53,983 bases of DNA, from positions 1 to 53,983 of the IMG/VR virus record IMGVR_UViG_3300032313_001579; one strand, given 5' to 3'. Position 1 is the first letter of the stretch, and every line of letters begins with the position of its first letter. Below the pieces are notes generated by a model, which was given only the letters and a program-made list of their open reading frames with translations, made no database searches and was not told the origin of the DNA. The DNA is from a virus. Shown piece after piece: positions 723-43,333 of this stretch. The position numbers were made by a program, and so were the translations under genes.

Positions 723-1361
723 ATGGCTCGATATCTAAGAGAACATCTAAGCTTCACTCAGGCAAGAGCAGAAATCTTGTCTGAGGAAGCCGCGGATGGC
801 TCCGGCAAGAATCTCTACCTCAAAGGCATCTGCATTGAGGGCGGAGTTCGCAACGCCAATGAACGAGTATATCCTGTGAACGAAATAGCCAAGGCTGTGG
901 ACACCGTCAACGAACAGATCAAGACTGGTCATTCAGTGCTGGGTGAAGTAGATCACCCAGAAGACTTGAAGATCAACCTGGATCGTGTGAGTCACATGAT
1001 TGAAAAAATGTGGATGGATGGTTCTGCTGGATATGGAAAATTAAAGATATTACCCACACCCATGGGTGAGCTGGTAAAAACCATGCTGACCTCGGGCGTG
1101 AAATTAGGTGTTAGCAGTCGTGGCAGCGGTAACGTCAACGACGCCAACGGACATGTCAGTGACTTTGAAATTGTCACTGTAGATGTGGTTGCTCAGCCCA
1201 GTGCTCCCAACGCATATCCCACAGCAATCTACGAAGGCCTGTTAAATCATGCCGGCGGAGCTAGACTGTTGGAAATGTTCCGGGACCCAGCCAAGAGCAA
1301 CAAAGCACAGAGATACGTTCAAAGCGAAGTAATGCGTTTGATACGTGGTCTCAAAATCTAG
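723..1361 (+). CDS. 21: Prohead core protease gp21
   Basis: A 212-residue protein of the same length as T4 gp21, the serine protease that processes the scaffold, the major capsid protein and internal proteins inside the prohead, typically after (L/I)xE. Features seen: HPE motif with H78 in EVDHPEDL, then the serine motif GVSSRGSG at about 129-136 (candidate nucleophile S131 or S132), followed by DFEIVTVDVVAQPSAPNA, typical of the family. It sits between the acidic core protein and the gp22 scaffold, as in T4. Starts at ATG 723 with a weak upstream GGGTAGAT. A self-processing site is possible at the N-terminus (ILSEE). Identification is firm from motif order, length and synteny. Confidence 0.93.
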   Translation: MARYLREHLSFTQARAEILSEEAADGSGKNLYLKGICIEGGVRNANERVYPVNEIAKAVDTVNEQIKTGHSVLGEVDHPEDLKINLDRVSHMIEKMWMDGSAGYGKLKILPTPMGELVKTMLTSGVKLGVSSRGSGNVNDANGHVSDFEIVTVDVVAQPSAPNAYPTAIYEGLLNHAGGARLLEMFRDPAKSNKAQRYVQSEVMRLIRGLKI

Positions 1362-1372
1362 GAGAAATAAGC

Positions 1373-2473
1373 ATGTTAGATGCTATTAAACCGTTACTAG
1401 ATAGCGAACTATTAAGCGAAGAAGCTCAGCAAGAAATTACTGAGGCCTGGGAAACCAAGTTAAACGAAGCCCGCGAACAAGTGCGTGTAGAACTCCGCGA
1501 AGAGTTTGCACAACGCTATGAGCATGACAAACAAGTGATGGTGGAAGCCCTGGATCGTATGGTAACAGACGGTCTGACCGCAGAAGTCCAAGCAGTGCAA
1601 GCTGAAAAGCAAGCTCTAGCCGAAGACCGCGTCCGATTCCAAGCTCGGATCAAAGAAGATGCTACTAAGTTTAACAACTTCATGATCACCAAACTAGCTG
1701 AGGAAATTGGAGAACTGCGCAAAGATCGCAAGACACACAACGACGGAATGACCAAGTTAGAATCATTCGTTGTTCATGCTCTTGCACGCGAGATTCAAGA
1801 ATTTGCCGAAGACAAACAAGATGTGGTCAACACAAAAGTACGTCTAGTGGCCGAAGCTCGCACCAAGTTGGAACAATTGAAAGGCCGTTTCGTCACAGAA
1901 TCAGCCCGCAAAATGTCCAACGCTGTTAGCCAACATCTCCGGGCTGAACTCAGCCAACTCAAAGAAGACATCCAAGTTGCTCGCGAGAACAATTTTGGAC
2001 GCAGAATCTTTGAAGCATACGCCACTGAATTTGGCGCCACTCATCTCAATGAGAAAGCCGAAGTGCGCAAACTACATGACATCATTGCAAACAAAGATGC
2101 CAAGTTGGCCGAAGCCGTCCAGTTCACCGAGAAAGCCAAAGTTCTCGTTGAATCAAAAGAACGCGAGATCCGCATGATCAAGGAATCCAATCAACGCGAA
2201 AGCGCCATGGAAGAATTGCTGTCTCCTCTAAACGAAGAGAAGCGCGAAATCATGAAGAACTTGCTTGAAAGCGTGCAGACAAGTCGTTTGTCTAATGCTT
2301 TTGAAAAGTATCTACCAGCTGTACTAGCCGAAGGTACTGTGAAAGCCCGTAAAGTGATCACAGAAACTGTAAGCGTGGCCACTGGCGATAAATCTGCCCG
2401 CAGTCCAGATGCAGATCAAGCGGCTGACAGTGTCAGCAACGTGATCGATCTCAAGCGTTTGGCAGGGCTGTAA
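1373..2473 (+). CDS. 22: Prohead scaffold protein gp22
   Basis: A 366-residue, highly charged, almost wholly alpha-helical protein with long heptad-like Glu/Lys/Arg/Leu stretches, expected of the major scaffold that fills the prohead before DNA packaging and is then cut to peptides by gp21. It lies between protease and major capsid protein, the T4 order 21-22-23. The N-terminus MLDAIKPLLDSELLSEEAQ resembles other scaffold proteins of the group. ATG 1373 is preceded by TAGGAGA, a good ribosome binding site. Numerous LxE-like sites are compatible with proteolysis. The C-terminal segment NVIDLKRLAGL may be the part that contacts the capsid shell (inference). Confidence 0.9.
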   Translation: MLDAIKPLLDSELLSEEAQQEITEAWETKLNEAREQVRVELREEFAQRYEHDKQVMVEALDRMVTDGLTAEVQAVQAEKQALAEDRVRFQARIKEDATKFNNFMITKLAEEIGELRKDRKTHNDGMTKLESFVVHALAREIQEFAEDKQDVVNTKVRLVAEARTKLEQLKGRFVTESARKMSNAVSQHLRAELSQLKEDIQVARENNFGRRIFEAYATEFGATHLNEKAEVRKLHDIIANKDAKLAEAVQFTEKAKVLVESKEREIRMIKESNQRESAMEELLSPLNEEKREIMKNLLESVQTSRLSNAFEKYLPAVLAEGTVKARKVITETVSVATGDKSARSPDADQAADSVSNVIDLKRLAGL

Positions 2474-2501: not shown

Positions 2502-3698
2502 ATGTCACAAGAATTATTAGAAGGCCGTTGGGACGAAACCAAAGACGCACTCTTGGAAGGTTTATCCGGATCCAAGCGTAGCTCAATGAGTGTAATCCTT
2601 GAAAATACCAAGAAGTACTTGCGTGAGAACGCTTCTTCTGGTTCCACAGTATCTGGTAACATCGCCACATTAAACCGTGTGATTCTGCCAGTGATCCGTC
2701 GTGTAATGCCAACTGTTATTGCTAACGAGTTGGTTGGTGTTCAGCCAATGACAGGTCCTGTTGGTCAAATCCACACATTACGTGTGCGTTATGCCCAGAG
2801 CTTGACAGACAGCAGTGCAGCTAGCACCAGCGTAACAGCTGGTCAAGAAGCATTGAGCCCATTCACAATTGCTACAGCGTACTCCACAGTTCCAACAGCT
2901 CAAACAACAGCTACTGGTTACACTGGTAACAACACAGCAAACATGGAAGGCACAGGCGGTAAGCAAATTTCCGTGCAGATCTTGAAACAAGCTGTTGAAG
3001 CTAAGACACGCAAGTTACAAGCTCGTTGGACATTTGAATCTGCACAAGACGCACAAGCCATGCATGGCATTGACGTTGAAGCAGAGATCATGGCTGCTCT
3101 TGCACAAGAGATCACAGCTGAGATTGACCAAGAAATCCTGTTGAGCTTGAGCACATTGGCTGCTACAGAGTTTACATACAACCAAGCTACTGTGTCTGGT
3201 ACAGCAACATTCGTTGGTGATGAGCATGCCGCTTTGGCAGTGTTGATCAACCGCGTTGCTAACTTGATCGCTCAGCGTACACGTCGTGGCGCTGGTAACT
3301 TTGCTGTTGTATCTCCAGCATCTTTAACAGTATTGCAATCTGCAACAACTTCAGCTTTTGCTAGAACTACAGAAGGCACATTTGAAGCACCTACAAACAC
3401 CAAGTTTGTTGGTACACTCAATGGCGCAATGCGTGTGTTCTGCAACAGCTACGCCGCAGACACAGCTAGTGTGTTGGTAGGTTATAAAGGCACAAGCGAG
3501 GCAGATGCTGCCGCGTTCTATTGCCCATATATTCCTTTAATGAGCAGCGGTGTTGTTCTTGATCCATCAACATTCGAACCAGTCGTATCATTCATGACAC
3601 GTTATGGCTTCGTTGAATTGACCAACACAGCAAGTTCGTTTGGTAACGCTGCCGACTATGTCGGAGAGATTGCCGTACAAAACTTGTCATTCTCCTAA
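2502..3698 (+). CDS. 23: Major capsid protein gp23
   Basis: A 398-residue protein that forms the hexamers of the head (HK97 fold). The N-terminal propeptide is followed by a candidate gp21 cleavage site YLRE/NASSG after residue 41, matching in place and pattern the T4 gp23 processing site (FLTE/A). After it come the family blocks VILPVIRRVMPTVIANELVG, VQPMTGPVGQIHTLRVRY and the late FMTRYGFVELTN. ATG 2502 has an excellent ribosome binding site, AAGGAG at 2490-2495, 6 bases away. The gene is followed by an intrinsic terminator. Shorter than T4 gp23 (521 residues), in the range usual for aquatic T4-like phages. Confidence 0.96.
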   Translation: MSQELLEGRWDETKDALLEGLSGSKRSSMSVILENTKKYLRENASSGSTVSGNIATLNRVILPVIRRVMPTVIANELVGVQPMTGPVGQIHTLRVRYAQSLTDSSAASTSVTAGQEALSPFTIATAYSTVPTAQTTATGYTGNNTANMEGTGGKQISVQILKQAVEAKTRKLQARWTFESAQDAQAMHGIDVEAEIMAALAQEITAEIDQEILLSLSTLAATEFTYNQATVSGTATFVGDEHAALAVLINRVANLIAQRTRRGAGNFAVVSPASLTVLQSATTSAFARTTEGTFEAPTNTKFVGTLNGAMRVFCNSYAADTASVLVGYKGTSEADAAAFYCPYIPLMSSGVVLDPSTFEPVVSFMTRYGFVELTNTASSFGNAADYVGEIAVQNLSFS

Positions 3699-16989: not shown

Positions 16990-19449
16990 ATGGGCTTGAC
17001 CAAACCGCGTGCCGCGCAGATATTCAACTTAGATTACAAGCAATCTACGCGGGTAGTTACCACCACCAACATTACCTTGACGGGCGGCGCCCCCAACAGT
17101 GTAGATGGTGTCAATCTCAGTCTGAATGATAGAATCTTGGTCACGGGACAGACTACTGGCAGTCAAAACGGACTTTACCTTGTGACCACACTGGGTTCGG
17201 GCGCCAATGGTACCTGGGCCAGAACCAGCGATGGCAACGAAAACGGTGAAATTGAAGCCGGCATGATTGTGATGGTCACCGAAGGTACCATCTATGCCGA
17301 CACCCAATGGAAACTGATCACCGATGATCCTATTACGATCGGGACCACGGCCCTGACGTTTACACAAAACTACATGGCCAACTCAATATCGGGTGGTACT
17401 TCAAACGTAGTAGTTAACAGCAATGCCAATGTTACAATAAGTAGTGCTGGCACGGCCAACGTGCTGACTGTGAGCAGTGCAGGAACAGTAACCTCTGGAA
17501 CAGCAAGTGTTACAGGAAACGTTACAGGTGGTAACATCCTAACAGGTGGATTGATCAGTGCCACTGGCAACATCACCGGTGGCAACATACGCACAGCTGG
17601 GGTAGTAAGTGCCACAGGAGATATGTTTGGAAAAGAACTATGGTCAACCCAATCATCTGGCGACGAAGGCGGCCAAGTTAATCTTGGTATACCTGCTGCC
17701 AACACTGCCTTAACTGGCCAAGTTACCATTGATGTTTTTCAAAATCAATTGAGATTTTTCCAGGGCAACAGCTCTAGAGGTGCATACATTGACTTGTCAG
17801 CAGCGGCAGTTGGAGTAGGTTCAAACTTGTTGGCTGGCGGCGGTGGAGGTGGCACTCCAGGAGGATCAAACACTCAAGTTCAGTTCAACGATGGTGGTGC
17901 ATTTGGTGGCAATGCACAATTTACGTATAATAAAGCAACAAATATTCTTACTGCTGGCATTATATCTTCCTCTAACAACGGCAACGGAACAAACTTCCAA
18001 GTTGGCGACGACGCTTATATAGGTGATATCAACACTGCTGACACCATTGGCATCAGAGGTCAACAAAATGCTGCCAACGGGTTCATTGTGTTTGGTAATG
18101 CAGATTCTACAGGCAAACTTGGCCGCGCCGGCACTGGGCCGCTGACCTATGTTGGTGCGTTTAGCGCCACAGGTAACATAGATGGTGGCAATCTACGCAC
18201 CGCTGGGTTGATAAGTGCCACTGGTGCAATTACTGGTGCTGCCTTGACAGGTACCAGCTTGACGGTAAGCACAGGTAACATCACTGGCGGCAACTTGTTG
18301 TTGTCGGGTGCTATCCTTGATTCAGCTCAGTTGGACATACAGACCAGTGCTGCCAATGCCAACATTGTGTTGACACCAAACGGCACCGGCAACGTTAATA
18401 CTGGTGCCAATCTAAGTGTTACAGGTAATGTACAAGCTGGTAATCTTAAAACAGCCGGACTTATCAGTGCCACCTCAACTATTACAAGTGCGGCCAATAT
18501 TACAGGTGGTAACATCTTGACAGCTGGATTAATCAGTGCTACAAGTACTATCACAAGTGCGGCCAATATTACAGGTGGTAACATCTTGACAGCTGGCATA
18601 ATGAGTTCAACTGGCAATGGCATACATGGTAATATCTTAACAGCTGGCTTAATCTCGGCCACAAGTACCATAACCTCAGCTGCCAATGTGATTGGTGGTA
18701 ACATCAGCACAGCTGGATTGATCACAGCCACTGGCAACATACAGGGTGGCAACTTAAGAACAGCTGGATTGATCACGGCCACTGGTGCTATAACCGGTGC
18801 GGCCATTACGGGCTCTAGCCTGACTGTGACCACAGGCAACATCACAGCCGGTAATTTAATAATTAGCGGTGCCATTCAAGATTCTGCACAGTTAGACATC
18901 CAAACCACCGCAGCCAACGCCAACATTGTGCTCACACCCAACGGCACTGGAGTGATTGTTGCAGCTAAAGATATACGTAACGGACAGGCCACTGGTGTGG
19001 GCAATATTGGAGCCGCTGGCGCTACGTTCAACACTGTATTTGCCAAGGCCACCTCAGCACAATACGCTGACTTGGCAGAAAATTATCTAGCTGATTCTAA
19101 TTACGAGCCAGGGACCGTGGTTGAATTTGGCGGCATGAATGAAGTTACTATTTCTACACAAAATCACTCAACACGAGTGGCTGGCATTGTATCAACTAAT
19201 CCCAGTTATTTGATGAACTCTGCGCAGGCCGGCGAACATGTAATAGCAGTGGCACTCACGGGTCGTGTGCCTTGTAGCGTAGTTGGCACTATAGCCAAGG
19301 GTGATAGATTGGTTGCCAGCGATCAACCTGGAGTGGCTCAACCGTTAGATAAAAATTTTTACGAACCTGGTTGTATCATTGGCAAAGCTCTTGAATCCTA
19401 CAATTCAAATCAGATTGGAACAATAGAAGTTGCTGTGGGCAGATTCTGA
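16990..19449 (+). CDS. Second large tail fibre protein
   Basis: 819 residues. Residues about 17-135 form the module STRVVTTTNITLTGG ... RILVTGQTTGSQNGLYLVTT ... WARTSDG, related to the RILVKDQ unit inside the giant fibre. Short GGN repeats follow, then GGSNTQVQFNDGGAFGG and FTYNKATNIL, a second repeat block (about residues 480-620) and a C-terminal SAQYADLAENYLADSNYEPG ... GTIEVAVGRF domain paralogous to that of the giant fibre. Glycine run at about 278-288 looks like a flexible hinge. Likely a receptor-binding or accessory fibre. Start ATG 16990 behind GGGA (16980-16983). TGATG overlap with the next gene. Confidence 0.78.
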   Translation: MGLTKPRAAQIFNLDYKQSTRVVTTTNITLTGGAPNSVDGVNLSLNDRILVTGQTTGSQNGLYLVTTLGSGANGTWARTSDGNENGEIEAGMIVMVTEGTIYADTQWKLITDDPITIGTTALTFTQNYMANSISGGTSNVVVNSNANVTISSAGTANVLTVSSAGTVTSGTASVTGNVTGGNILTGGLISATGNITGGNIRTAGVVSATGDMFGKELWSTQSSGDEGGQVNLGIPAANTALTGQVTIDVFQNQLRFFQGNSSRGAYIDLSAAAVGVGSNLLAGGGGGGTPGGSNTQVQFNDGGAFGGNAQFTYNKATNILTAGIISSSNNGNGTNFQVGDDAYIGDINTADTIGIRGQQNAANGFIVFGNADSTGKLGRAGTGPLTYVGAFSATGNIDGGNLRTAGLISATGAITGAALTGTSLTVSTGNITGGNLLLSGAILDSAQLDIQTSAANANIVLTPNGTGNVNTGANLSVTGNVQAGNLKTAGLISATSTITSAANITGGNILTAGLISATSTITSAANITGGNILTAGIMSSTGNGIHGNILTAGLISATSTITSAANVIGGNISTAGLITATGNIQGGNLRTAGLITATGAITGAAITGSSLTVTTGNITAGNLIISGAIQDSAQLDIQTTAANANIVLTPNGTGVIVAAKDIRNGQATGVGNIGAAGATFNTVFAKATSAQYADLAENYLADSNYEPGTVVEFGGMNEVTISTQNHSTRVAGIVSTNPSYLMNSAQAGEHVIAVALTGRVPCSVVGTIAKGDRLVASDQPGVAQPLDKNFYEPGCIIGKALESYNSNQIGTIEVAVGRF
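18484..18596 (+). repeat. Exact 44-base direct repeat, 69-base period
   Basis: An identical 44-base stretch occurs at 18484-18527 and 18553-18596. The period is 69 bases, equal to one 23-residue fibre unit, so this is a very recent duplication of a single repeat unit. Confidence 0.85.
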
Positions 19450-24820: not shown

Positions 24821-25705
24821 ATGCATCGAATTCCTAACAAAGTAGACTTCTATATAACCAATGTTTGCAATTTAACCTGTCAACGCTGTAACAGATTTAA
24901 CAACTTTGATTTTAAAGGTTGGCAGGATTGGAAAGACTACCGGGAAACTTACGAGCAGTGGAGTAAACTTGTTAGTCTACGTGCCATAACAATCATGGGC
25001 GGCGAACCCTTCTTGAACCCTACGCTCAAAGATTGGGTGGCAGGTCTTAATGATCTTTTCAGTATTGAAGTTCAAGTGCTGACCAACGGCACCCGCTTCC
25101 TACAAGCAAAAGGAGTATATGAAACCATGTTTTATAGATCTCCTGTTAGTAATGAGCAAAATCATATCGGAGTTAGTTTACACACCCCAGAAGATTTTGA
25201 ACAAATTCGTGCTGATATCTACGAATTCCTTAAAGGTGATGTAACCGAGTTCGCTAAAGATCAAAATCTCTGGGGTGCAGACTGGCAATTTAAGGATAGT
25301 AATGGCGTAATGATCAATGTTTATACCGTGGATAAATTTGCCGGAGCTGCGATTATTCCTAAATTTGAAGGCGGATATACATTACATGACAGCGACCCAG
25401 AACAAGCACACTCGACCTGTGCTTTTGCTAATTGGAAATCCTATCATTTTGTTCGTGGTAAATTTTACAAGTGTGGTCCATCTGCTCTATTGCCTGAATT
25501 TGATGATCAACACCACCTGGGCATCAGCGACAACGATCGCACCTTGCTACACGCTTACAAACCGCTTACCGTGGATAATTTTGCCGAATACCACGAAGAA
25601 TTTTTTGCCAACCTAGACAACCCGATTGCACAGTGTAAATTTTGCCCAGCTAGCCACCAGATGGAAAAAATCTATCCTGTACGCAAAGGTTCTAAATCTA
25701 GCTAA
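24821..25705 (+). CDS. Radical SAM enzyme
   Basis: 294 residues. The iron-sulfur motif CNLTCQRC (C16, C20, C23) opens the barrel and GGEP (60-63) binds S-adenosylmethionine. Four more Cys (CAFANW, YKCGPS and CKFCPAS in the C-terminal third) suggest an auxiliary cluster of SPASM or twitch type, the kind used by peptide-modifying enzymes. The substrate is unknown. Placed between an unknown early gene and the neck gene gp13, with a late-promoter octamer 5 bases from ATG. Two further radical SAM genes occur in the window (40003, 48486), but this one lacks their N-terminal Cys region. Confidence 0.85.
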   Translation: MHRIPNKVDFYITNVCNLTCQRCNRFNNFDFKGWQDWKDYRETYEQWSKLVSLRAITIMGGEPFLNPTLKDWVAGLNDLFSIEVQVLTNGTRFLQAKGVYETMFYRSPVSNEQNHIGVSLHTPEDFEQIRADIYEFLKGDVTEFAKDQNLWGADWQFKDSNGVMINVYTVDKFAGAAIIPKFEGGYTLHDSDPEQAHSTCAFANWKSYHFVRGKFYKCGPSALLPEFDDQHHLGISDNDRTLLHAYKPLTVDNFAEYHEEFFANLDNPIAQCKFCPASHQMEKIYPVRKGSKSS

Positions 25706-33684: not shown

Positions 33685-34128
33685 ATGCCCAATTTTCGTC
33701 AAGGCATCTATACAGTGAAGAATCCTGGCAAGTATGTGGGCAAGGGCACGCCCAGATACAGATCTGGCTGGGAACTGACCTTCATGATGTTTCTTGACAG
33801 CAACGACAACATCGTACAGTGGGCCAGTGAAAGCATCACCATACCCTACAGAAATCCCATCACAGGAAAACAGAGCATGTATGTGCCAGATTTTTTTGTG
33901 ACTTACCGTGGACGTGACAACACAACTCGAGCAGAACTGATAGAAATCAAGCCCAAAAAACAAAGCCTGATTGAAAGCCGAATGACAGATAGAGATCGTG
34001 CTATAGTAGCTGTCAACTACGCCAAATGGGATTCTGCAACCAAATGGGCTCGACGCAACGGGCTCACATTTAGAGTGATCAACGAAGATCAGATATTCCA
34101 TCAAGGCAGCAAAAAGACCGGTAAATAG
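33685..34128 (+). CDS. 4: Head completion protein gp4 (nuclease-like fold)
   Basis: 147 residues (T4 gp4 150). Motifs: YRSGWELTFMMFLD with E30, YVPDFFVTYRG with P68-D69, and LIEIKPKK with E87 and K89, a PD-(D/E)xK arrangement shared with TnsA-like nucleases. gp4 finishes filled heads and gives them competence for tail joining; the DNA end may be its substrate. Compact neighbours on both sides (2-3 base gaps). Confidence 0.9.
   Translation: MPNFRQGIYTVKNPGKYVGKGTPRYRSGWELTFMMFLDSNDNIVQWASESITIPYRNPITGKQSMYVPDFFVTYRGRDNTTRAELIEIKPKKQSLIESRMTDRDRAIVAVNYAKWDSATKWARRNGLTFRVINEDQIFHQGSKKTGK
34120..34127 (+). promoter_or_regulatory. Late-promoter-like GGTAAATA at the gp4 stop, 4 bases from gp16 ATG
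   Basis: The octamer overlaps the AAATAG end of gp4, then GGTC, then ATG. It may be chance because AAATAG is a natural Lys-stop end, but the same geometry occurs at 41673-41685. Confidence 0.35.
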
Positions 34129-34131
34129 GTC

Positions 34132-34632
34132 ATGACGAGGAAATTAGAAGAACTTTTTGATCTGCCGCCCAGTGGTTGCGAAAGCGAAACTACTGAATCC
34201 GCGGCCGCCACTGAACAAACCCGTAGTCAGTTGGCGCAGATAGATGCTACTATAGACAAGATAGATGCAGCCTTGCCCATGGTGCGTGATTTAGAAGCCG
34301 GAGATGGCGAGTTGGATGACTTGGCTAACAAAGCCCAGGAAACCTTTGACAACTTGATGGATCTGGGTTTCAATGTGGACAGCCGCTATGCGTCAGAAAT
34401 ATTTGCTGTGGCCGGAACCATGCTGGGACATGCGCTCACAGCCAAGACTGCCAAGTTGAACAAAAAGCTAAAAATGGTAGATCTACAGTTGAAAAAGATG
34501 AAAATGGATCAGGACCAGGCCAGCAAGAGTGGTGATGAACCTGTGGAAACAGCACACGGACAGGTGCTGAGTCGCAACGATTTGTTGGAACGACTCATGA
34601 GCACAAGAGACCAAAACAATAACAAAGCATAA
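34132..34632 (+). CDS. 16: Small terminase subunit gp16
   Basis: 166 residues, T4 gp16 164. Pattern: MTRKLEELFDLPP, then helical ATIDKIDAALPMVRDL, DLANKAQETFDNLMDLGFNVDSRYASEIFAVAGTMLGHALTAKTAKLNKKLKMVDLQLKKMKMD. This central coiled coil with the hinge DLGFNVD is typical of gp16, which regulates the packaging motor and binds DNA ends. The large subunit gp17 lies 7 kb downstream here, not next to it as in T4. Confidence 0.92.
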   Translation: MTRKLEELFDLPPSGCESETTESAAATEQTRSQLAQIDATIDKIDAALPMVRDLEAGDGELDDLANKAQETFDNLMDLGFNVDSRYASEIFAVAGTMLGHALTAKTAKLNKKLKMVDLQLKKMKMDQDQASKSGDEPVETAHGQVLSRNDLLERLMSTRDQNNNKA

Positions 34633-34653: not shown

Positions 34654-35262
34654 ATGAAAAATTTTCAAGAATACCTGGCCGAAAGCCAAAGAACCTACAA
34701 CTATCGCATGAAAATTGTGGGCGATGTTGAACCTGGGGTGATCAAAGCCTTGGAGGAAAAACTTCAACAGTTTGATCCTGTAAAAATTGGCGCTGTGAAA
34801 AAAACGCCCATACAGCTCAAACCTGCAGACTTTCCTGCACATGCCAATGAAAGTGTGAGTTGCATGGACTGTGAATTCCGCTATCCGGCCATTGAGCCAC
34901 AGATCCAACAGATTGCTCAACTGTTGGGACTTGATCCCAACCGTGTGCGTTTGTTGACCACGGCCTATGAAGACAGCCTGAATGTAGAGCGTGAAAAGGT
35001 TGAAGAAGAAAACAAAGACCTGCTGACCGATACTGACTATCCTGCACCGGACGCAGAACAACGAGCACTCAGCAAAGATTACTCAGCACCCTATGACGAG
35101 CATGCTGTGTTGAAGAATGCCTACCGCAGTGATTTTACCGTGGCTGGTGGCAAGACACCACCTGCCCGGACCACAAACGATTTGCCAATGGGCACATCAA
35201 GCCCTATGACCAAGGTCAAACGCCCACCACGTCCAGCCACTGGCGCCAACCCAAGAGGATAA
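34654..35262 (+). CDS. Probable internal capsid protein with capsid-targeting N-terminus
   Basis: 202 residues. The N-terminus MKNFQEYLAES closely resembles the T4 capsid-targeting peptide of internal proteins (MKTYQEFIAEA), and LAE/S is a consensus gp21 cleavage site. The body has SVSCMDCEFRYPAIEPQ, a helical region LLGLDPNRVRLLTTAYEDSL, and a Pro/Lys-rich C-terminus (KVKRPPRPATGANPRG). Function after cleavage unknown. Follows gp16 with its own late promoter. Confidence 0.55.
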   Translation: MKNFQEYLAESQRTYNYRMKIVGDVEPGVIKALEEKLQQFDPVKIGAVKKTPIQLKPADFPAHANESVSCMDCEFRYPAIEPQIQQIAQLLGLDPNRVRLLTTAYEDSLNVEREKVEEENKDLLTDTDYPAPDAEQRALSKDYSAPYDEHAVLKNAYRSDFTVAGGKTPPARTTNDLPMGTSSPMTKVKRPPRPATGANPRG

Positions 35263-35266
35263 CAGC

Positions 35267-37120
35267 ATGACATTTTTTTATGACCTAAACAAACGATTGG
35301 CTGACCTAGCCAAAAAACAAGAGCTTACAGAAAGTGCTCAACCTGCTGTGGCCGAAGGCAGTACAGGCGACTATTCAGCTAAAAAGGCTGCCGCTGGCAA
35401 AGATATTGGCAAGCCAGGAAAAATGTTTTCAAAGATTGCTAAATCAGCAGGCAAAGAATATGGTAGCAAGGCCGCAGGCGAACGTGTGGCCGGTGCTGTG
35501 TTGAACAAGTTGCGTGCCAAAGAAAGTGTAGAAGAAAGCGACATGGATGAGTCAGCATTGCAAGCCTACATTGGCGACAAAAAATATGGCAAAGCCGGTA
35601 TGGATGCACTTCGCAAAGCCGGACGCGAAGGCGCCAGCAAAGACAAAATGAGTCAGATTCGCAATCGCTACAACAAGATGGACGAAGCTGACATGGAAGA
35701 AGGCAATTATTTTGGTAATCAAGTTAGGCTTGCCAAAGAAAAAGGTTTGAAGAAAGCCGACCTAGATGGCGACGGCGACATGGAAACAGTGCGTGAAGCA
35801 AGCAAGCCGGACTACATTGACCTGGACAAGGACGGCAACCGTAAAGAAACTATGAAAAAAGCTGCCGCTGACAAAAAGAAAAGTCGCGGTGCAGGTACAG
35901 CATTTGATCCTGAAGTGGCCAAATCAATGTTTGCCACCAAAGACGAACATCCACGCTATGATGTCAAAGATACCGGTTACAGCAAGCGTTATACTCGTAA
36001 GGTTCAAGATGAACCAAAAGACGACACAGAAGTTGACACAGGTCCCAAGAAAAAAGGCCGTCCAAAAGGTCCTGAAAAAGGTCCTGAGCGTGTGACCAAG
36101 GGCAGCACCAAGTACAAGATGGTGGGTGGCCAGCGTGTGAAAAAAGAAAAAACCAAGGAAGATCTTGACACTGATGGCGTTATGATGAACACACCCAGCA
36201 ACATGAGCAGTGAAGACATTGAAAGCATTTCATTGATCAACAAAGGTGAATACGATCGTGAAGGCGACATGGCCAAAGATGATTTACAAAGTCTTGCCAT
36301 GGCAGCCAAAGAATTGCACAGTATCCTGGGTGACGATGAGAATCTGCCAGAGTGGGTTCAAAGCAAGATCACCAAGGCCTTGGACTATATCAATTCCAGC
36401 AATCAATACATGCAACAACAAAAAAATGATGCGGAACCTGTGGCAGAAAAAGCTGTAAGCAAAAAACAACAGCGTTTTATGGGCATGGTTCATTCAGCAC
36501 AAAAAGGCGAAAAGCCATCCAGCAAAGAAGTAGCCAAGGTAGCCAAGACAATGGGCAAAAAAGATGCCGAAGACTTTGCCAAGACCAAGCACAAAGGCCT
36601 ACCAGAAAAAGTCAAAGAAGCAGATGCAGAAACACCTAAAGAGAAAAAATCCAAAGGTGGTTACGATTTTGGTGGCAGTGTGTACGAAAACTACAACAAA
36701 CAGCTCACAAAGTTGCTCACAGAAGGCATGAATATCACAGTGAACATGAACACTGGCCCAGATGGTCAACCCAGCAAGAATATCACAGTCAGTGCCGACG
36801 GCGACGATGCTGAAGCACTTGCCGCATTGTTAAAGATGGCCGGCATCGGCGGTCACGACAACGCAGAAAGCTGTGGTACCTGTGGCAAAGCACCTTGCGG
36901 CTGTGAAGCACTTGACGAGAACTCACCAGACTGGCCTACCAATACAGAAACATCAGACAATGCACTACAGTACTCAGGCGGCTTAAACGGTCCTAAATCA
37001 ACTGGACAAACAACAGTTCCTGTGATTGCCAGCCAACTGCGTAGACAAGCATCAATGGAAGAATCTGTAAAAATTGAGCGCAACTTGTTTAAGTTATACA
37101 ACAACTACAAGAATCAATGA
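35267..37120 (+). CDS. Large charged low-complexity protein, probable internal head protein
   Basis: 617 residues, very Lys/Glu/Asp/Ala-rich. Visible elements: two short Asp-rich loops that look like calcium-binding repeats (DLDGDGDMETV and DYIDLDKDGNRKE at about 163-193), an AT-hook-like KKKGRPKGPEKG (about 260-272), and a Cys cluster SCGTCGKAPCGC (about 532-546). Several LxE-type sites could be cut by gp21. Together this suggests a DNA-associated protein packaged in the head, but no family can be named. ATGA overlap with the next gene (37117). Confidence 0.5.
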   Translation: MTFFYDLNKRLADLAKKQELTESAQPAVAEGSTGDYSAKKAAAGKDIGKPGKMFSKIAKSAGKEYGSKAAGERVAGAVLNKLRAKESVEESDMDESALQAYIGDKKYGKAGMDALRKAGREGASKDKMSQIRNRYNKMDEADMEEGNYFGNQVRLAKEKGLKKADLDGDGDMETVREASKPDYIDLDKDGNRKETMKKAAADKKKSRGAGTAFDPEVAKSMFATKDEHPRYDVKDTGYSKRYTRKVQDEPKDDTEVDTGPKKKGRPKGPEKGPERVTKGSTKYKMVGGQRVKKEKTKEDLDTDGVMMNTPSNMSSEDIESISLINKGEYDREGDMAKDDLQSLAMAAKELHSILGDDENLPEWVQSKITKALDYINSSNQYMQQQKNDAEPVAEKAVSKKQQRFMGMVHSAQKGEKPSSKEVAKVAKTMGKKDAEDFAKTKHKGLPEKVKEADAETPKEKKSKGGYDFGGSVYENYNKQLTKLLTEGMNITVNMNTGPDGQPSKNITVSADGDDAEALAALLKMAGIGGHDNAESCGTCGKAPCGCEALDENSPDWPTNTETSDNALQYSGGLNGPKSTGQTTVPVIASQLRRQASMEESVKIERNLFKLYNNYKNQ

Positions 37121-37854
37121 AAACACTAAAAGAATACATCGCTGAAAGTGAACAATGGATGGCATCGCCTGCTGCAGGTGACACCTTTGCCATTGAACTA
37201 GACGACGGTGTGTTGATTGAAACCTACATAATCGAAGTGGCCGACGATTGTATTCTTCTAGATTCTACCCCAGAAATCAATGCAGCCTTGAGTGAATGGG
37301 CCACACTGGAAGACACTGATGAAGGCGATTCAGGTGTGATACTTGAGACCATGGGCTACGGCACACTAGTAGGTGAAGGCGCCATGAAGCACGAAATGAT
37401 GAAGAATGCAGAACGCATGAGTTTAGAACAGTTCAAAGACCGCTATGGTGACGAAGACTGGATTGAAGAATTTTGGCGCACAGCCACTGGCGAGACAGAG
37501 CAGTTGAAAGACGATCAAGATGCGGCCGTGGTAGCTGGCAAAGAAGCTGCGATTGATGCCGCACAACGCTTGGCCACAGACGAAGCCAAGTATCAAGGTC
37601 GTGAAGTCGCTCTCAACAAACCCATGGCGGGAGATGTAAAAAAATCAAAAGTGTATGTGCGAGACCCTGCTACTGGCAACATCAAAAAAGTAAACTTTGG
37701 TCACGGCGGCAAAACTGCCAAACGATTGGGTCAAAAGACCATGAAGATAAAAAAATCTAATCCGGCTCGTAGAAAGAGTTTTAGAGCAAGACACAATTGC
37801 GACAACCCAGGACCAAAAACCAAGGCGCGATATTGGTCTTGCCGTGCGTGGTAA
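37117..37854 (+). CDS. Probable internal capsid protein with capsid-targeting N-terminus
   Basis: 245 residues. N-terminus MKTLKEYIAESEQ fits the T4-type capsid-targeting peptide, with IAE/S as the cleavage site. The acidic middle (EDTDEGDSG) is followed by a basic C-terminal domain KSKVYVRDPATGNIKKVNFG, then KSNPARRKSFRARHNCDN and TKARYWSCRAW, with conserved-looking Arg and Cys. I recall this C-terminal block from other aquatic phage proteins with no assigned function. Overlaps the previous gene by four bases (ATGA). Confidence 0.6.
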   Translation: MKTLKEYIAESEQWMASPAAGDTFAIELDDGVLIETYIIEVADDCILLDSTPEINAALSEWATLEDTDEGDSGVILETMGYGTLVGEGAMKHEMMKNAERMSLEQFKDRYGDEDWIEEFWRTATGETEQLKDDQDAAVVAGKEAAIDAAQRLATDEAKYQGREVALNKPMAGDVKKSKVYVRDPATGNIKKVNFGHGGKTAKRLGQKTMKIKKSNPARRKSFRARHNCDNPGPKTKARYWSCRAW

Positions 37855-37869
37855 ACAAAGGAAAATAAA

Positions 37870-38160
37870 ATGGCTGCAAACGTATATACAACACTAGGTA
37901 ACACCACAGTCTACACAGACAAACTACAAATCTCAACAGGTGCCAACGCAGTTACCTATCAAGTCTATGCCACTGCTCTAGGCAGTGCTGCACCTGTTGG
38001 TAATATCTATTCAGCACCAATCTCAATTCCAGCCAACACCATATTTGAAGTTTACTCAGGAGCAGGCAACAAAGTCACAGTGGCCGGCACACCATTTACA
38101 GCCTTGGAACTGGGCACAGCCAGTTCTGCACAAGAAAGCGTGATCGGCACCGGAGCCTGA
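37870..38160 (+). CDS. Small beta-rich virion protein
   Basis: 96 residues, MAANVYTTLGNTTVYTDKLQIS, with a repeated Thr/Ala/Val strand pattern and C-terminal GTASSAQESVIGTG. AAAGGA precedes the ATG. Comparable small proteins occur in aquatic T4-like phages near head genes and are taken as structural. It has the same general style as the 103-residue protein at 7061. Function unknown. Confidence 0.55.
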   Translation: MAANVYTTLGNTTVYTDKLQISTGANAVTYQVYATALGSAAPVGNIYSAPISIPANTIFEVYSGAGNKVTVAGTPFTALELGTASSAQESVIGTGA

Positions 38161-38162
38161 TC

Positions 38163-38534
38163 ATGCGAGCCCGCGAGTTTATTGCTGAACGTGACGGCAA
38201 GATTGGCATTCGCAGACAATCTGCTACCAGAGGGCTGACCGTATTTGGCGATGCAGAACGTAGCAACAGTGACTACACATTGAATCGTGTGATGATGGCG
38301 GCGGCCATGGCCGACGGATCGGGCAATGTGCTGGACATGGATGAAAAAAGTTGGATAGGAAAAAAACGTGGTGCTTATCCTTACACTGAAATTGAACACG
38401 AAATGCTGAAACAAGCATTCCGTGCAGCCGGGGCAGAATACACTGATTTGAATGCAGGCGACATGGACTCAGAAGAGGTACCCAGTACCAACACACACAG
38501 TCCTGTAATAGCATTCCAAGGATACCCCCGATGA
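38163..38534 (+). CDS. MRAREF-family protein, capsid-targeting-like N-terminus
   Basis: 123 residues. Starts MRAREFIAERDGK; IAE/R fits a gp21 cut. The body GLTVFGDAERSNSDYTLNRVMMAAAM ... KSWIGKKRGAYPYTEIEHEMLKQAFRAAGAEYTDL is a compact helical domain that I recall from aquatic T4-like phages. The C-terminus HSPVIAFQGYPR is nearly shared with the next protein, so the two look like diverged relatives at both ends. ATGA overlap with the next gene. Confidence 0.6.
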   Translation: MRAREFIAERDGKIGIRRQSATRGLTVFGDAERSNSDYTLNRVMMAAAMADGSGNVLDMDEKSWIGKKRGAYPYTEIEHEMLKQAFRAAGAEYTDLNAGDMDSEEVPSTNTHSPVIAFQGYPR

Positions 38535-38914
38535 GAGCTAGAGAGTTTGTGTCTGAAAGTCGTGCAAAGTTGCCACCAGAGGCCGCAGGCCCCATGCATG
38601 ACACCTACATGTTGCCAGGTTTAAGAAACAACGATGCGTACCGCAGTTACAGATTTGGTGTGGCCATGGCTCGTGCTCGAGCCGACCTAGGCGGCCCCGG
38701 AAAAGACCTGCCCAAGTGGAACACAGAAAGTGCCATGGGCATGTATGGAATTATTGCTGGCTTTGATGAAACAGTGGATCCTGTAATAGATCTAGCACTC
38801 AAAATGACTGACATCAAAGGTGGGAAAATAGCTGTCAGCACAGACGACAGTGAAGAACCTGCCTATGTCACAACCCGAAGCCCCATAAATAGTTTCAAAG
38901 GATACCCAAGATAA
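38531..38914 (+). CDS. MRAREF-family protein, second copy
   Basis: 127 residues. Starts MRAREFVSESRAK and ends RSPINSFKGYPR, matching the ends of the preceding protein, while the middle (GPMHDTYMLPGLRNNDAYRSYRFGVAMARARAD ... DLALKMTDIKGGK) differs. Terminal conservation suggests that the ends serve a common purpose such as head targeting. Both genes are coupled by ATGA and the next by TAATG. Confidence 0.6.
   Translation: MRAREFVSESRAKLPPEAAGPMHDTYMLPGLRNNDAYRSYRFGVAMARARADLGGPGKDLPKWNTESAMGMYGIIAGFDETVDPVIDLALKMTDIKGGKIAVSTDDSEEPAYVTTRSPINSFKGYPR
38884..38891 (+). promoter_or_regulatory. Late promoter CATAAATA inside the end of the preceding gene
   Basis: CATAAATA 22 bases before ATG 38914, with AAAGGA in between (11 bases before the ATG). 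Confidence 0.5.
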
Positions 38915-40002: not shown

Positions 40003-41133
40003 ATGAGCAATTTCTATTGTGCCGCCCCTTGGCGAGGCCTACACATCAATCCGCGTGGTGATGTCAAAACCTGTTGTGCAGGCGATCCCAACATGCTGGG
40101 CAATCTCAATACTCAAAGCATAGAAAGTATTCTGCATGGTCCTGTCATGCAAGAAATACGTCAAACTATTCGGCAAGGCCGTCCACATGAGCAATATTGC
40201 CACAATTGCATCCAAGCTGAACGCTATGGTCGCAGTGAACGCGATTGGCACAACACGGTCAGTCCAGAATTTGACCCAACAACAGCACCAGACGACGAAC
40301 ACCGTCCTGCCCTGATTGATGTGCGTTGGAATATTACCTGCAATCTGAGCTGTAATTATTGTGGCGACAAATGTTCGAGCAAATGGGCCGCATTGCAACA
40401 GGTGCCATTCAAGTCAGGTGCAAGACCATATTATCAGCAGGTTTGTGATTATCTCGAACACCATCGGTCGGCCATACGTGAAGTGGCCTTGGTCGGCGGT
40501 GAACCATTGTTGTTGCCAGAAAACGAACGACTGTTAGATGTCATACCAGATGATTGCATAGTGACATTGATAACCAATGTGTCGGTTGATTTGGCCTCAA
40601 ACAAAATTTTTAACAAATTAAAAACACGCAGTCAAGTGGGATGGAGTCTGAGTTTTGACAACATTGAATCACGTTTTGAATATGTAAGATACGGTTCCAG
40701 TTGGAACCTGTTGTTAAAAAATTTAAAGGTTATCAACAACCTGTTTGATCAACAAGGTCATTGGGGCGGAATACATGCTGTCTACAACATATACAATGCC
40801 ACACGATTGGTTGAATTTACCCAGTTTGCAAGAAGTCAAGGATTTACTATTCATTGGCAAAGTTTATATCAGCCAGACTGTTTAGATCCACAAAAATTAG
40901 GTTCTGCAACCATGTCATTGGCTCAAAAAGAAATTGAGCACTTGTTGACATTGGATATCTGTCTAGATTCAGAACGCGATTTTTTCCAACAAGTTCAACA
41001 AAATTTTAATTCCGTGCAGGATTTGAAAAATCAGTTTGCCGAACATACAAACAAGATTGAAACAATTTATCACACAGATCAACAAGGACAGTTTGAGATG
41101 TTATGGCCAGAACTGGAGTTCCTATGCAAATAA
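40003..41133 (+). CDS. Radical SAM enzyme with N-terminal Cys cluster
   Basis: 376 residues. Core motif CNLSCNYC (C113, C117, C120) and GGEP (165-168). Ahead of the core is a Cys-rich domain: C6 in YCAAPWRGLHINPRGDVKTCCAG, C24-C25, and C66-x2-C69 (YCHNC), a SPASM-like auxiliary cluster module placed at the N-terminus. The third radical SAM gene (48486) shares this plan. SPASM-type enzymes modify ribosomal peptides or proteins. It overlaps the start of the 2OG-Fe(II) oxygenase by 10 bases, so the two are probably translated together and may act on the same substrate. Confidence 0.87.
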   Translation: MSNFYCAAPWRGLHINPRGDVKTCCAGDPNMLGNLNTQSIESILHGPVMQEIRQTIRQGRPHEQYCHNCIQAERYGRSERDWHNTVSPEFDPTTAPDDEHRPALIDVRWNITCNLSCNYCGDKCSSKWAALQQVPFKSGARPYYQQVCDYLEHHRSAIREVALVGGEPLLLPENERLLDVIPDDCIVTLITNVSVDLASNKIFNKLKTRSQVGWSLSFDNIESRFEYVRYGSSWNLLLKNLKVINNLFDQQGHWGGIHAVYNIYNATRLVEFTQFARSQGFTIHWQSLYQPDCLDPQKLGSATMSLAQKEIEHLLTLDICLDSERDFFQQVQQNFNSVQDLKNQFAEHTNKIETIYHTDQQGQFEMLWPELEFLCK

Positions 41134-41684: not shown

Positions 41685-41774
41685 ATGTTCAATAAAATAA
41701 AAAAACCTCGGCATGTTGGAGTATTTTATGCTCAACCAATGCCAGCAGAAAACATGCTCAAGGAGTTGGTATGA
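41685..41774 (+). CDS. 29-residue small ORF coupled to large terminase
   Basis: ATG 41685 to TGA 41774: begins MFNKIKKPRHVGVFYAQ, ends NMLKELV. It fills the gap between the oxygenase and gp17, has a late-promoter-like octamer 4 bases upstream, and its stop overlaps the terminase ATG as ATGA. Its last bases AAGGAG form the ribosome binding site of gp17. It may be a leader peptide coupling translation or a small basic protein. Conservation cannot be judged here. Confidence 0.45.
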   Translation: MFNKIKKPRHVGVFYAQPMPAENMLKELV

Positions 41775-43333
41775 CTGCAGAGAGCGCACTGGTCAAGGCT
41801 CCATACAAACGCACTACGTTTACTGACCAACAACTTGATGAATTTTTAAAATGTGCTGATCCAGTTACCGGTCCAGAATATTTCATGGACAACTTTTTTT
41901 ACATACAGCATCCCACACGTGGCAAGATGCTGTACCACCCGTTCGAATATCAATCACGCCTGATTCATACCTATCACAATTATAGATTTAGCATCAGCAT
42001 GATGCCCAGGCAAACCGGTAAGTCGACTTCGGCAGCAGGTTACCTGTTGTGGTATGCCATGTTCGTACCAGACTCAACCATCCTAATTGCCGCACACAAA
42101 TACACAGGCTCACAGGAAATCATGCAACGTATCCGATACGCTTATGAACTATGTCCAGATCACATACGTGCAGGTTGCACCAGTTACAACAAAGGTAACT
42201 TGGATTTTGAAAACGGATCAAGAATAGTTTCAACAACCACAACAGAAAACACCGGTCGTGGTATGAGTATATCCTTGTTATACGCAGACGAGTTTGCATT
42301 TGTTCGTCCCGGTATTGCCAAAGAATTCTGGACCTCTATCAGTCCGACCTTGGCCACTGGTGGTAAAGCAATTATTACTAGCACACCAAATTCAGACGAA
42401 GATCAGTTTGCTCTGCTATGGAAAGGCGCCAACCGTTGCGAAGATGAGTTTGGCAATCCCACGGATCTGGGCATTAATGGATTCCGTGCCTATCGCAGTT
42501 ACTGGAACGAACATCCAGACCGTGATGAACGTTGGGCCACCGAACAACGAGCACAGCTAGGCGAAGATCGTTTCAGGCGAGAGATGGGATGCGAATTTAT
42601 CATCAACGATGAAACGCTTATAGCTCCAGCCAAGCTGATAGATCTACAAGGACACGAGCCCTTGTATAAAACCGGACAGGTGCGCTGGTATCAACGACCC
42701 AGGAAAGATCGTACCTATGTGATAGCTCTAGATCCCAGCCTGGGTACCGGTGGCGATCCTGCGGCCATACAGGTGTTTGAAGCCGAAACCACTGAACAGG
42801 TGGCCGAATGGCGCCACAACAGAACCACCATACCTGAACAGGTACGTATTTTGACCAGTATCTGTGCCCATATCAATGAAACTGTGCAGAATCCGCAAAA
42901 AGTCTACTTCAGCATAGAAAACAACACCATTGGCGAAGCTGCCTTGATCAGCATAGCCGAATACGGAGAAGAAAATATCCAAGGCTATTTTCTCAGCGAA
43001 CCCAGTGGTGGCGGCAATCGCAGATATCGCAAAGGATTCAACACCACCAACAAGCCCAAACTGGCAGCCTGTAACAAGCTCAAATTGCTGGTAGAAACCG
43101 GTCGCATGAAAATACGTAGCTCGGGCCTGGTTTCAGAGCTCAAAACTTTTGTGGCTTCGGGCATGGGCTATGCAGCCAAACCCGGCGAAACTGACGATCT
43201 TGTTATGAGCACAGTACTGGCCATACGCATGTTACAGTTGCTCCAGACCTATGACAGTGACATCAATAATCAACTGCGTGATCACGGCGATGAGATTAGA
43301 CCACCCATGCCGTTCATAGCAGTATTGCGATAA
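41771..43333 (+). CDS. 17: Large terminase subunit gp17
   Basis: 520 residues (T4 610). ATPase: Walker A MPRQTGKST (78-86), Walker B LLYADE with D173-E174, coupling motif ITSTPN (202-207). Nuclease: D321 in IALDPSLGTGGD, E383 in YFSIENN, D475-D476 in GETDDLVMS. gp17 cuts the DNA concatemer and drives it into the head. AAGGAG precedes the ATG, which overlaps the 29-residue ORF. The stop codon TAA is part of the next late promoter. Confidence 0.96.
   Translation: MTAESALVKAPYKRTTFTDQQLDEFLKCADPVTGPEYFMDNFFYIQHPTRGKMLYHPFEYQSRLIHTYHNYRFSISMMPRQTGKSTSAAGYLLWYAMFVPDSTILIAAHKYTGSQEIMQRIRYAYELCPDHIRAGCTSYNKGNLDFENGSRIVSTTTTENTGRGMSISLLYADEFAFVRPGIAKEFWTSISPTLATGGKAIITSTPNSDEDQFALLWKGANRCEDEFGNPTDLGINGFRAYRSYWNEHPDRDERWATEQRAQLGEDRFRREMGCEFIINDETLIAPAKLIDLQGHEPLYKTGQVRWYQRPRKDRTYVIALDPSLGTGGDPAAIQVFEAETTEQVAEWRHNRTTIPEQVRILTSICAHINETVQNPQKVYFSIENNTIGEAALISIAEYGEENIQGYFLSEPSGGGNRRYRKGFNTTNKPKLAACNKLKLLVETGRMKIRSSGLVSELKTFVASGMGYAAKPGETDDLVMSTVLAIRMLQLLQTYDSDINNQLRDHGDEIRPPMPFIAVLR

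What the first reader, a model, noticed from the sequence alone, without database searches (positions are those of the whole stretch)
34654..38914. Four proteins with T4-like capsid-targeting peptides ending in gp21 sites
MKNFQEYLAE/S (34654), MKTLKEYIAE/S (37117), MRAREFIAE/R (38163) and MRAREFVSE/S (38531) resemble the T4 internal-protein targeting peptide MKTYQEFIAE, which is removed by gp21. The gp21 gene and a matching site in gp23 (YLRE/N after residue 41) are in the same window. In T4 such proteins are injected with the DNA and defend it or take over the host. These four are therefore candidate injected effectors with unknown activity.
Basis: partly seen in the sequence, partly recalled or inferred. 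Interest (0 to 1): 0.7.

Follow-up and report, generated by a model that had tools for sequence, protein, structure and literature searches.

The report
Capsid-entry tags on jumbo-phage proteins
Four neighbouring proteins of an uncultured giant T4-like phage begin with a short peptide that almost certainly directs them into the phage head and is then clipped off, and in related phages the same peptide sits on dozens of unrelated proteins, including likely host-attacking enzymes, so it can be used to find proteins that phages inject with their DNA.

Summary
The four ORFs at 34654, 37117, 38163 and 38531 start with 9-10 residue peptides ending in [LIV]xE, and no other gene start in the window does (4 of 55; shuffled starts give 0.04). 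The peptide is not particular to these proteins. In IMG/VR the 9-residue form MRAxEF[IVL]xE heads about 28 unrelated bodies, among them ADP-ribosyltransferase, kinase, GNAT, GH19, LysM and ParB-like proteins. A scrambled pattern is nearly absent. A weight matrix trained only on those other proteins ranks the window's four as the top 4 of 816 starts and, in T4, ranks gp61.1, IPIII and IPII as the top 3 of 1326. All ten tagged records of at least 150 kb from that scan encode a gp21-type protease (random records 2/6). When E9 is lost, RAxEF stays and a new [LI]xE appears downstream. Best reading: T4-type capsid-targeting sequences cleaved by gp21, in a new 9-residue variant plus the classic 10-residue form. 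'Injected effector' is unproven for these four: none has an enzymatic domain. The 34654 protein is a conserved, syntenic virion protein (PA5oct homologue detected by MS), more likely a core component. Cleavage, packaging and injection were not shown here.

The parts
34654..35262 (+). ORF A, 202 aa, tag MKNFQEYLAE/S (tag codons 34654-34683); conserved tagged protein, N-terminal ~100 aa probably ferredoxin-like
   Evidence: 78 of 82 homologues keep the canonical tag; PA5oct homologue EST35_0202 is annotated structural protein, ESI-MS/MS; phrog_14802 virion structural protein; low-confidence model shows beta-alpha-beta-beta-alpha-beta
37117..37854 (+). ORF C, 245 aa, tag MKTLKEYIAE/S (tag codons 37117-37146); C-terminal phrog_7595 domain
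   Evidence: 24 of 28 homologues with the N-terminal region keep the canonical tag
38163..38534 (+). ORF E, 123 aa, tag MRAREFIAE/R (tag codons 38163-38189)
   Evidence: PWM rank 1 of 816
38531..38914 (+). ORF F, 127 aa, paralogue of E, overlapping start ATGA, tag MRAREFVSE/S (tag codons 38531-38557)
   Evidence: PWM rank 2 of 816; AlphaFold2 model pLDDT 87, tag a separate short helix at pLDDT 62
723..1361 (+). gp21-type prohead protease, proposed to remove the tags
   Evidence: phrog_207 head maturation protease, E 1.9e-58
2502..3698 (+). gp23 major capsid protein; predicted gp21 site L40-R41-E42/N43 (codon 42 = 2625-2627)
   Evidence: phrog_138, E 6.3e-98; site conservation
1373..2473 (+). 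ORF between gp21 and gp23, by position the gp22-like scaffold that would form the docking core
   Evidence: phrog_10922, unknown function; scaffold role inferred from gene order only
35267..37120 (+). ORF B, 617 aa Lys/Arg/Asp/Glu-rich neighbour, untagged but with LTE/S near its N-terminus; overlaps start of C (ATGA)
   Evidence: same-position gene EST35_0203 of PA5oct is MS-detected
34132..34632 (+). small terminase (gp16-like), syntenic marker
   Evidence: phrog_445, E 4.1e-5
33685..34128 (+). head closure / gp4-like protein, syntenic marker
   Evidence: phrog_218, E 5.7e-38
41771..43333 (+). large terminase gp17, syntenic marker
   Evidence: phrog_36964 / phrog_2

Best explanation
The N-terminal peptides are T4-type capsid-targeting sequences (CTS). 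During prohead assembly the tag docks each protein onto the scaffold core through its hydrophobic face (F/L4 and Y7 in the 10-residue form; A3 and F6 in the 9-residue form). gp21 then cuts after the Glu of [LIV]xE, freeing the mature body inside the head with the DNA. Packaged bodies would leave with the DNA at infection. For E, F and C the body is probably an accessory or internal head protein, possibly an early-infection factor. For A it is more probably a conserved core component. SHOWN by sequence: tag position, conservation, modularity, co-occurrence with gp21, equivalence to the T4 IPII/IPIII tags. INFERRED: docking, cleavage, packaging, injection.
For: 142 of 145 matches open an ORF. 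Bodies fall into about 28 unrelated clusters, yet M1, A3 and F6 are invariant and R2, E5 and E9 are at 90% or more in 70 diverse members. (2) Selection acts on the peptide, not the DNA: 249 distinct 27-mers among 258 tags. (3) A matrix from 61 tags of other bodies ranks window C and A 3rd and 4th of 816 starts (E and F 1st and 2nd), and T4 gp61.1, IPIII and IPII 1st to 3rd of 1326 (annotation). (4) T4 genetics: residues 4 and 7 of the CTS target, 8 and 10 process (PMC9026906); these are the conserved positions here. (5) Separable halves: 217 of 224 E/F-body homologues have RAxEFhxE; in the 4 with E9 changed, RAxEF stays and [LI]xE appears at residues 11-13, as in T4 IPI, whose site lies at residue 19 (own knowledge; N-terminus MKTFKEFTSTTTPVSTITEA). 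(6) gp21 in 10/10 tagged records of at least 150 kb from the tag scan, against 2/6 random ones (Fisher p 0.008). (7) Virion data in a relative: the PA5oct homologue of A is MS-detected, and the two PA5oct proteins beginning MKINDIITE/G and MKIKDILVE/S at their annotated starts are both MS-detected.
Against: No N-terminal or virion data exist for this phage. gp21 was found in 0/17 tagged records of 60-100 kb; these look like fragments (gp21 lies about 30-220 kb from the tag in the long records), but that was not proved for each. A broader motif test on PA5oct virion proteins was not significant (4/49 detected vs 2/58 undetected, p 0.41). The position equivalent to the T4 targeting residue Y4 is Ala in the MRAxEF form. 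The PA5oct and Phosso homologues of A lack the Glu, so cleavage is not universal in that family. The mature bodies are acidic to neutral (pI 5.2-6.5), unlike the basic T4 internal proteins.
Confidence: 0.85

Rival explanations
1. The tag is a capsid-entry tag, and E, F and C are injected early-infection effectors (anti-restriction or host takeover).
For: In relatives the same tag precedes an ADP-ribosyltransferase (PF03496, E 9.5e-13), GNATs, a polyvalent-protein kinase, proteins matching a PHROG of host-takeover protein kinases and ParB-like domains. The tagged kinase/GNAT proteins match parts of DarB-like and PLxRFG polyvalent proteins of other phages. T4 Alt and IPI are precedents (PMC9026906).
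Against: E, F, C and A themselves have no recognised effector domain. The model of F has little structure beyond two main helices and no PDB match. E/F are found in many relatives as a fixed tandem pair, less variable than expected of arms-race genes. Part of C (phrog_7595) also occurs in pelagiphage podoviruses.
Confidence: 0.35
2. All four, or at least A, are structural core/scaffold components: the tag docks them into the prohead and cleavage frees the core, with no role after injection.
For: A is 72-91% identical across close relatives over its whole length and syntenic between gp16-like and gp17 genes from PA5oct to this phage; it is MS-detected in PA5oct. Four A homologues lack the Glu but keep the targeting residues, as expected of a protein that must enter the head but need not be freed.
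Against: E/F have no detectable homologue in cultured phages, so they are not universal core parts. T4 tagged proteins are mostly dispensable internal proteins.
Confidence: 0.45
3. The peptide is conserved for a non-head reason, such as a translation-enhancing 5' end, a recombination cassette, or docking to another partner.
For: It sits at the very start of genes, many in tandem, and tags are shared between unrelated bodies, as a recombining gene-start cassette would produce.
Against: Codons vary freely while residues do not (249 distinct 27-mers of 258). The late-promoter core is not enriched upstream (26/258 vs 266/1399). The same matrix finds the experimentally proven T4 CTSs.
Confidence: 0.05

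Closest known systems
T4 capsid-targeting sequence of IPII/IPIII (MKTYQEFIAE) and IPI
   Same: N-terminal, 9-10 residues, aromatic/aliphatic pair then xE, shared by unrelated bodies, gp21 protease in the genome; IPII and IPIII are among the top 3 T4 starts with a matrix trained on environmental tags
   Different: The MRAxEF[IVL]xE form is one residue shorter and has Ala where T4 has the targeting residue Y4; it is found on about 28 body types, including enzymes, whereas T4 has three IPs
T4 Alt (packaged ADP-ribosyltransferase)
   Same: Relatives of this phage have an MRAxEF-tagged ADP-ribosyltransferase of PF03496
   Different: Not in this window; none of the four window proteins is an ART
P1 DarB and polyvalent injected proteins
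   Same: P1 DarB carries an N-terminal capsid-targeting region that works on a reporter (PMC9024508); tagged kinase/GNAT modules match DarB-like polyvalent proteins
   Different: There many domains share one giant protein; here single domains each carry their own tag
PA5oct EST35_0202 and syntenic jumbo-phage proteins
   Same: Homologous over the first ~60-77 residues to ORF A, same gene order, MS-detected in PA5oct virions
   Different: PA5oct and Phosso versions keep F4/Y7 but lack the Glu of the cut site

Membership tests
T4-type capsid-targeting sequence (CTS) | Short peptide at the extreme N-terminus (10-19 residues in T4) | tested here: met
   Positions 1-10 or 1-9 of all four; starts confirmed by homologues
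T4-type capsid-targeting sequence (CTS) | Targeting residues 4 and 7 (Y4, F7 in IPIII) | tested here: inconclusive
   A: F4/Y7 and C: L4/Y7 fit; E/F have F6 in place of F7, but Ala3 in place of Y4, invariant across bodies
T4-type capsid-targeting sequence (CTS) | Processing residues: aliphatic at 8, Glu at 10, i.e. [LI]xE | tested here: met
   All four; 217/224 E/F-body homologues, and the E9-less ones have [LI]xE at residues 11-13
T4-type capsid-targeting sequence (CTS) | Shared by otherwise unrelated proteins of one phage group | tested here: met
   About 28 unrelated body clusters; mean column identity of 70 members 7% with the tag conserved
T4-type capsid-targeting sequence (CTS) | gp21-type prohead protease in the same phage | tested here: met
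   Window 723-1361; 10/10 tagged records of at least 150 kb
T4-type capsid-targeting sequence (CTS) | Tag removed in the virion; tag sufficient to package a foreign protein | not testable with these tools
   Needs virion proteomics or fusions
T4 internal proteins IPI-III | Small basic mature bodies | tested here: not met
   Mature pI 5.8 (A), 5.2 (C), 5.3 (E), 6.5 (F)
T4 internal proteins IPI-III | Sequence homology of the body | tested here: not met
   No T4 internal-protein match in Pfam, PHROGs or NCBIfam or by tblastn in phage records
Injected enzymatic effector (Alt-like, polyvalent) | Catalytic domain in the body | tested here: not met
   None in A, C, E, F; present in tagged proteins of relatives

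The most novel reading that the evidence does not exclude
A large group of uncultured T4-like jumbo phages uses one 9-residue address label (MRAxEF[IVL]xE, removed by gp21) to load many different effectors, among them ADP-ribosyltransferases, kinases, acetyltransferases, putative metalloproteases, lysozymes and ParB-like proteins, as separate small proteins into the head. This is a modular counterpart of the giant polyvalent injected proteins of other phages, and it lets the injected proteome be read from sequence alone.
Probability: 0.6. Interest if true: 0.78.

Novelty: new variant of a known kind. Interest (0 to 1): 0.62.

Why it matters
If the tag is a capsid-entry signal, it is a sequence handle for finding which of the thousands of unknown phage proteins are delivered into the host with the DNA, where anti-defence and host-takeover functions concentrate. 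It would also extend the T4 targeting code, known mainly from three T4 proteins, to jumbo phages and give short tags for loading proteins into other phage heads.

Tried and rejected
Late-promoter core TAAATA upstream of tagged genes: not enriched (26/258 vs 266/1399). Broad M[KR]..hxE motif among PA5oct virion-MS proteins: not significant (4/49 vs 2/58, p 0.41). Search for the peptide strings in papers: no phage paper found. Enzymatic or anti-defence domains in the four proteins: none. PDB by sequence for A, E/F and C: nothing convincing. Fold search: F has no PDB match, only one homologue-like hit from an uncultured phage; the A model is low confidence (pLDDT 57) and gives only generic ferredoxin-like matches, not used as functional evidence. 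Cultured phages with E/F homologues: none at E up to 1. First clustering with loci selected by homology gave only 4 bodies; the unselected pattern scan gave about 28.

Full report
OBSERVATION. The window is a 53,983-base IMG/VR virus record of a T4-like myovirus: gp21-type protease, a gp22-position ORF, gp23, sheath, tube, gp4-like, gp16-like and gp17 genes. The four reported ORFs exist with the reported N-termini. The motif M[KR]x(2-4)[FYL][ILVM]xE matches exactly these four among 55 gene starts; shuffling the N-termini gives 0.04 on average, and 0 of 301 internal methionines match. The gp23 site is L40-R41-E42/N43, so the cut is after residue 42, not 41; among 31 homologues L40 is invariant and E42 is kept in 28.

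THE TAG IS PORTABLE. In 120 sequences (the window and loci from homology searches), 14.5% of called gene starts match the tag, against 0.8% of internal methionines (these loci were chosen for containing tagged families, so the figure is inflated). Of 145 matches, 142 open a reading frame of at least 35 codons. After removing the tag, the proteins fall into about 28 unrelated clusters; a 70-member sample has 7% mean column identity, with M1, A3 and F6 invariant and R2, E5 and E9 nearly so. Among 258 tags there are 249 different 27-base sequences, so the peptide and not the DNA is conserved. In 20 long tagged records the pattern occurs 48 times and its reversed control never; nine random long records and five cultured phages have none.

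LINK TO T4. A weight matrix from 61 tags on bodies other than those of the window ranks window starts E, F, C, A as 1-4 of 816. E and F match the search pattern by construction, so C and A are the informative ones. The same matrix ranks T4 gp61.1, IPIII and IPII as 1-3 of 1326 T4 starts; IPIII is the protein on which the CTS was defined and IPII has the same propeptide. Published T4 genetics assigns targeting to residues 4 and 7 and processing to residues 8 and 10, with Asp10 allowing targeting but not processing (PMC9026906). The conserved positions here coincide, except that the position equivalent to residue 4 is Ala in the 9-residue form. Natural variation separates the two halves as T4 genetics does. 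Of 224 distinct E/F-body homologues, 217 have RAxEFhxE; in the four with E9 replaced, RAxEF remains and [LI]xE appears at residues 11-13, although these four may share one origin. Four of 82 A homologues, including PA5oct and Phosso, lack Glu10 but keep the targeting positions.

LINK TO gp21. Tag-scan records of at least 150 kb have gp21 in 10/10, random-pattern records in 2/6, Fisher p 0.008. Tagged records of 60-100 kb have it in 0/17. In the long records gp21 lies roughly 30-220 kb from the scanned tag, and about half of the tagged records of 60-150 kb carry the same large sheath or a gp17-type terminase, so fragmentation is the likely cause, but this is not proved for each. Records brought in by ORF A or F also mostly have gp21, one of 177 kb not.

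VIRION EVIDENCE FROM A RELATIVE. The PA5oct homologue of A is annotated as found by ESI-MS/MS and lies in the same gene order. PA5oct also has two short proteins with 9-residue N-termini of the same layout at their annotated starts, MKINDIITE/G beside the portal gene and MKIKDILVE/S; both are MS-detected. A broader motif count is not significant.

WHAT THE TAGGED PROTEINS DO. In relatives, tagged bodies include an ADP-ribosyltransferase of the exoenzyme family (E 9.5e-13), GNATs, class I chitinase/endolysin, LysM, ParB-like and kinase domains. One tagged GNAT-kinase protein matches parts of DarB-like and PLxRFG polyvalent proteins. The kinase also occurs in phages XacN1 and Slicko01 behind different N-terminal peptides that end in FLSE or LLE just before a conserved APLPDDWD, as if each phage lineage had its own version of the tag. 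P1 DarB is itself packaged by an N-terminal signal (PMC9024508). The four window proteins have no such domains. A is a conserved virion protein with a probable ferredoxin-like N-terminal part (low confidence). E and F are tandem paralogues; the model of F has two main helices and a loosely attached tag helix and no known fold. C ends in a domain (phrog_7595) shared with pelagiphages, including podoviruses.

VERDICT. Capsid-targeting sequence cleaved by gp21: about 0.85. Injected effector for E, F and C: about 0.35. A is more likely a core component. This is a new variant of a known kind: the CTS itself is known from T4, and a review has suggested that CTSs let T4-like phages load varied proteins. 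I found no description of the 9-residue form or of its spread over effector enzymes in the open-access papers searched, which does not cover subscription journals.

Noticed in passing
L395 (T4 AF158101) 18966-19130, minus strand: T4 gp61.1, annotated hypothetical (54 aa), begins MKTFKEFIKE/D and is the best T4 match to the environmental tag matrix, above IPII and IPIII: a candidate overlooked T4 internal head protein.
   Followed up: partly
L204:5135-7946: Three adjacent MRAxEF-tagged genes, including a PF03496 ADP-ribosyltransferase and a second 'LYHATG' protein that may also be an ART: a possible injected-effector island.
   Followed up: partly
L485 (Alishewanella phage Slicko01) 56-3609: Five consecutive genes share a different N-terminal peptide (LYESLLEE or LYSTLLE type) on ART-like bodies and a kinase, a possible lineage-specific capsid tag.
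   Followed up: no
L488 (Agrobacterium phage Atu_ph07) 2366-4982: Three consecutive genes begin MRLFQLLE, MRWHQLIE and MKWHQLTE, again suggesting a lineage-specific N-terminal tag.
   Followed up: no
L129:2992-3609: Tagged GH19-type endolysin/chitinase in which the tag is followed directly by DRRGFLGALGAGAMAAAG, resembling a twin-arginine signal.
   Followed up: no
window 35267-37120: Untagged 617-aa charged protein between A and C with a conserved central motif (phrog_30268 and others) and an LTE/S near its N-terminus; the same-position PA5oct gene is MS-detected, so it may be another prohead core protein.
   Followed up: no
window 24821-25705 and 40003-41133: Two ORFs with cysteine clusters (CNLTCQRC, CNLSCNYC) resembling radical-SAM proteins inside the structural gene region.
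   Followed up: no
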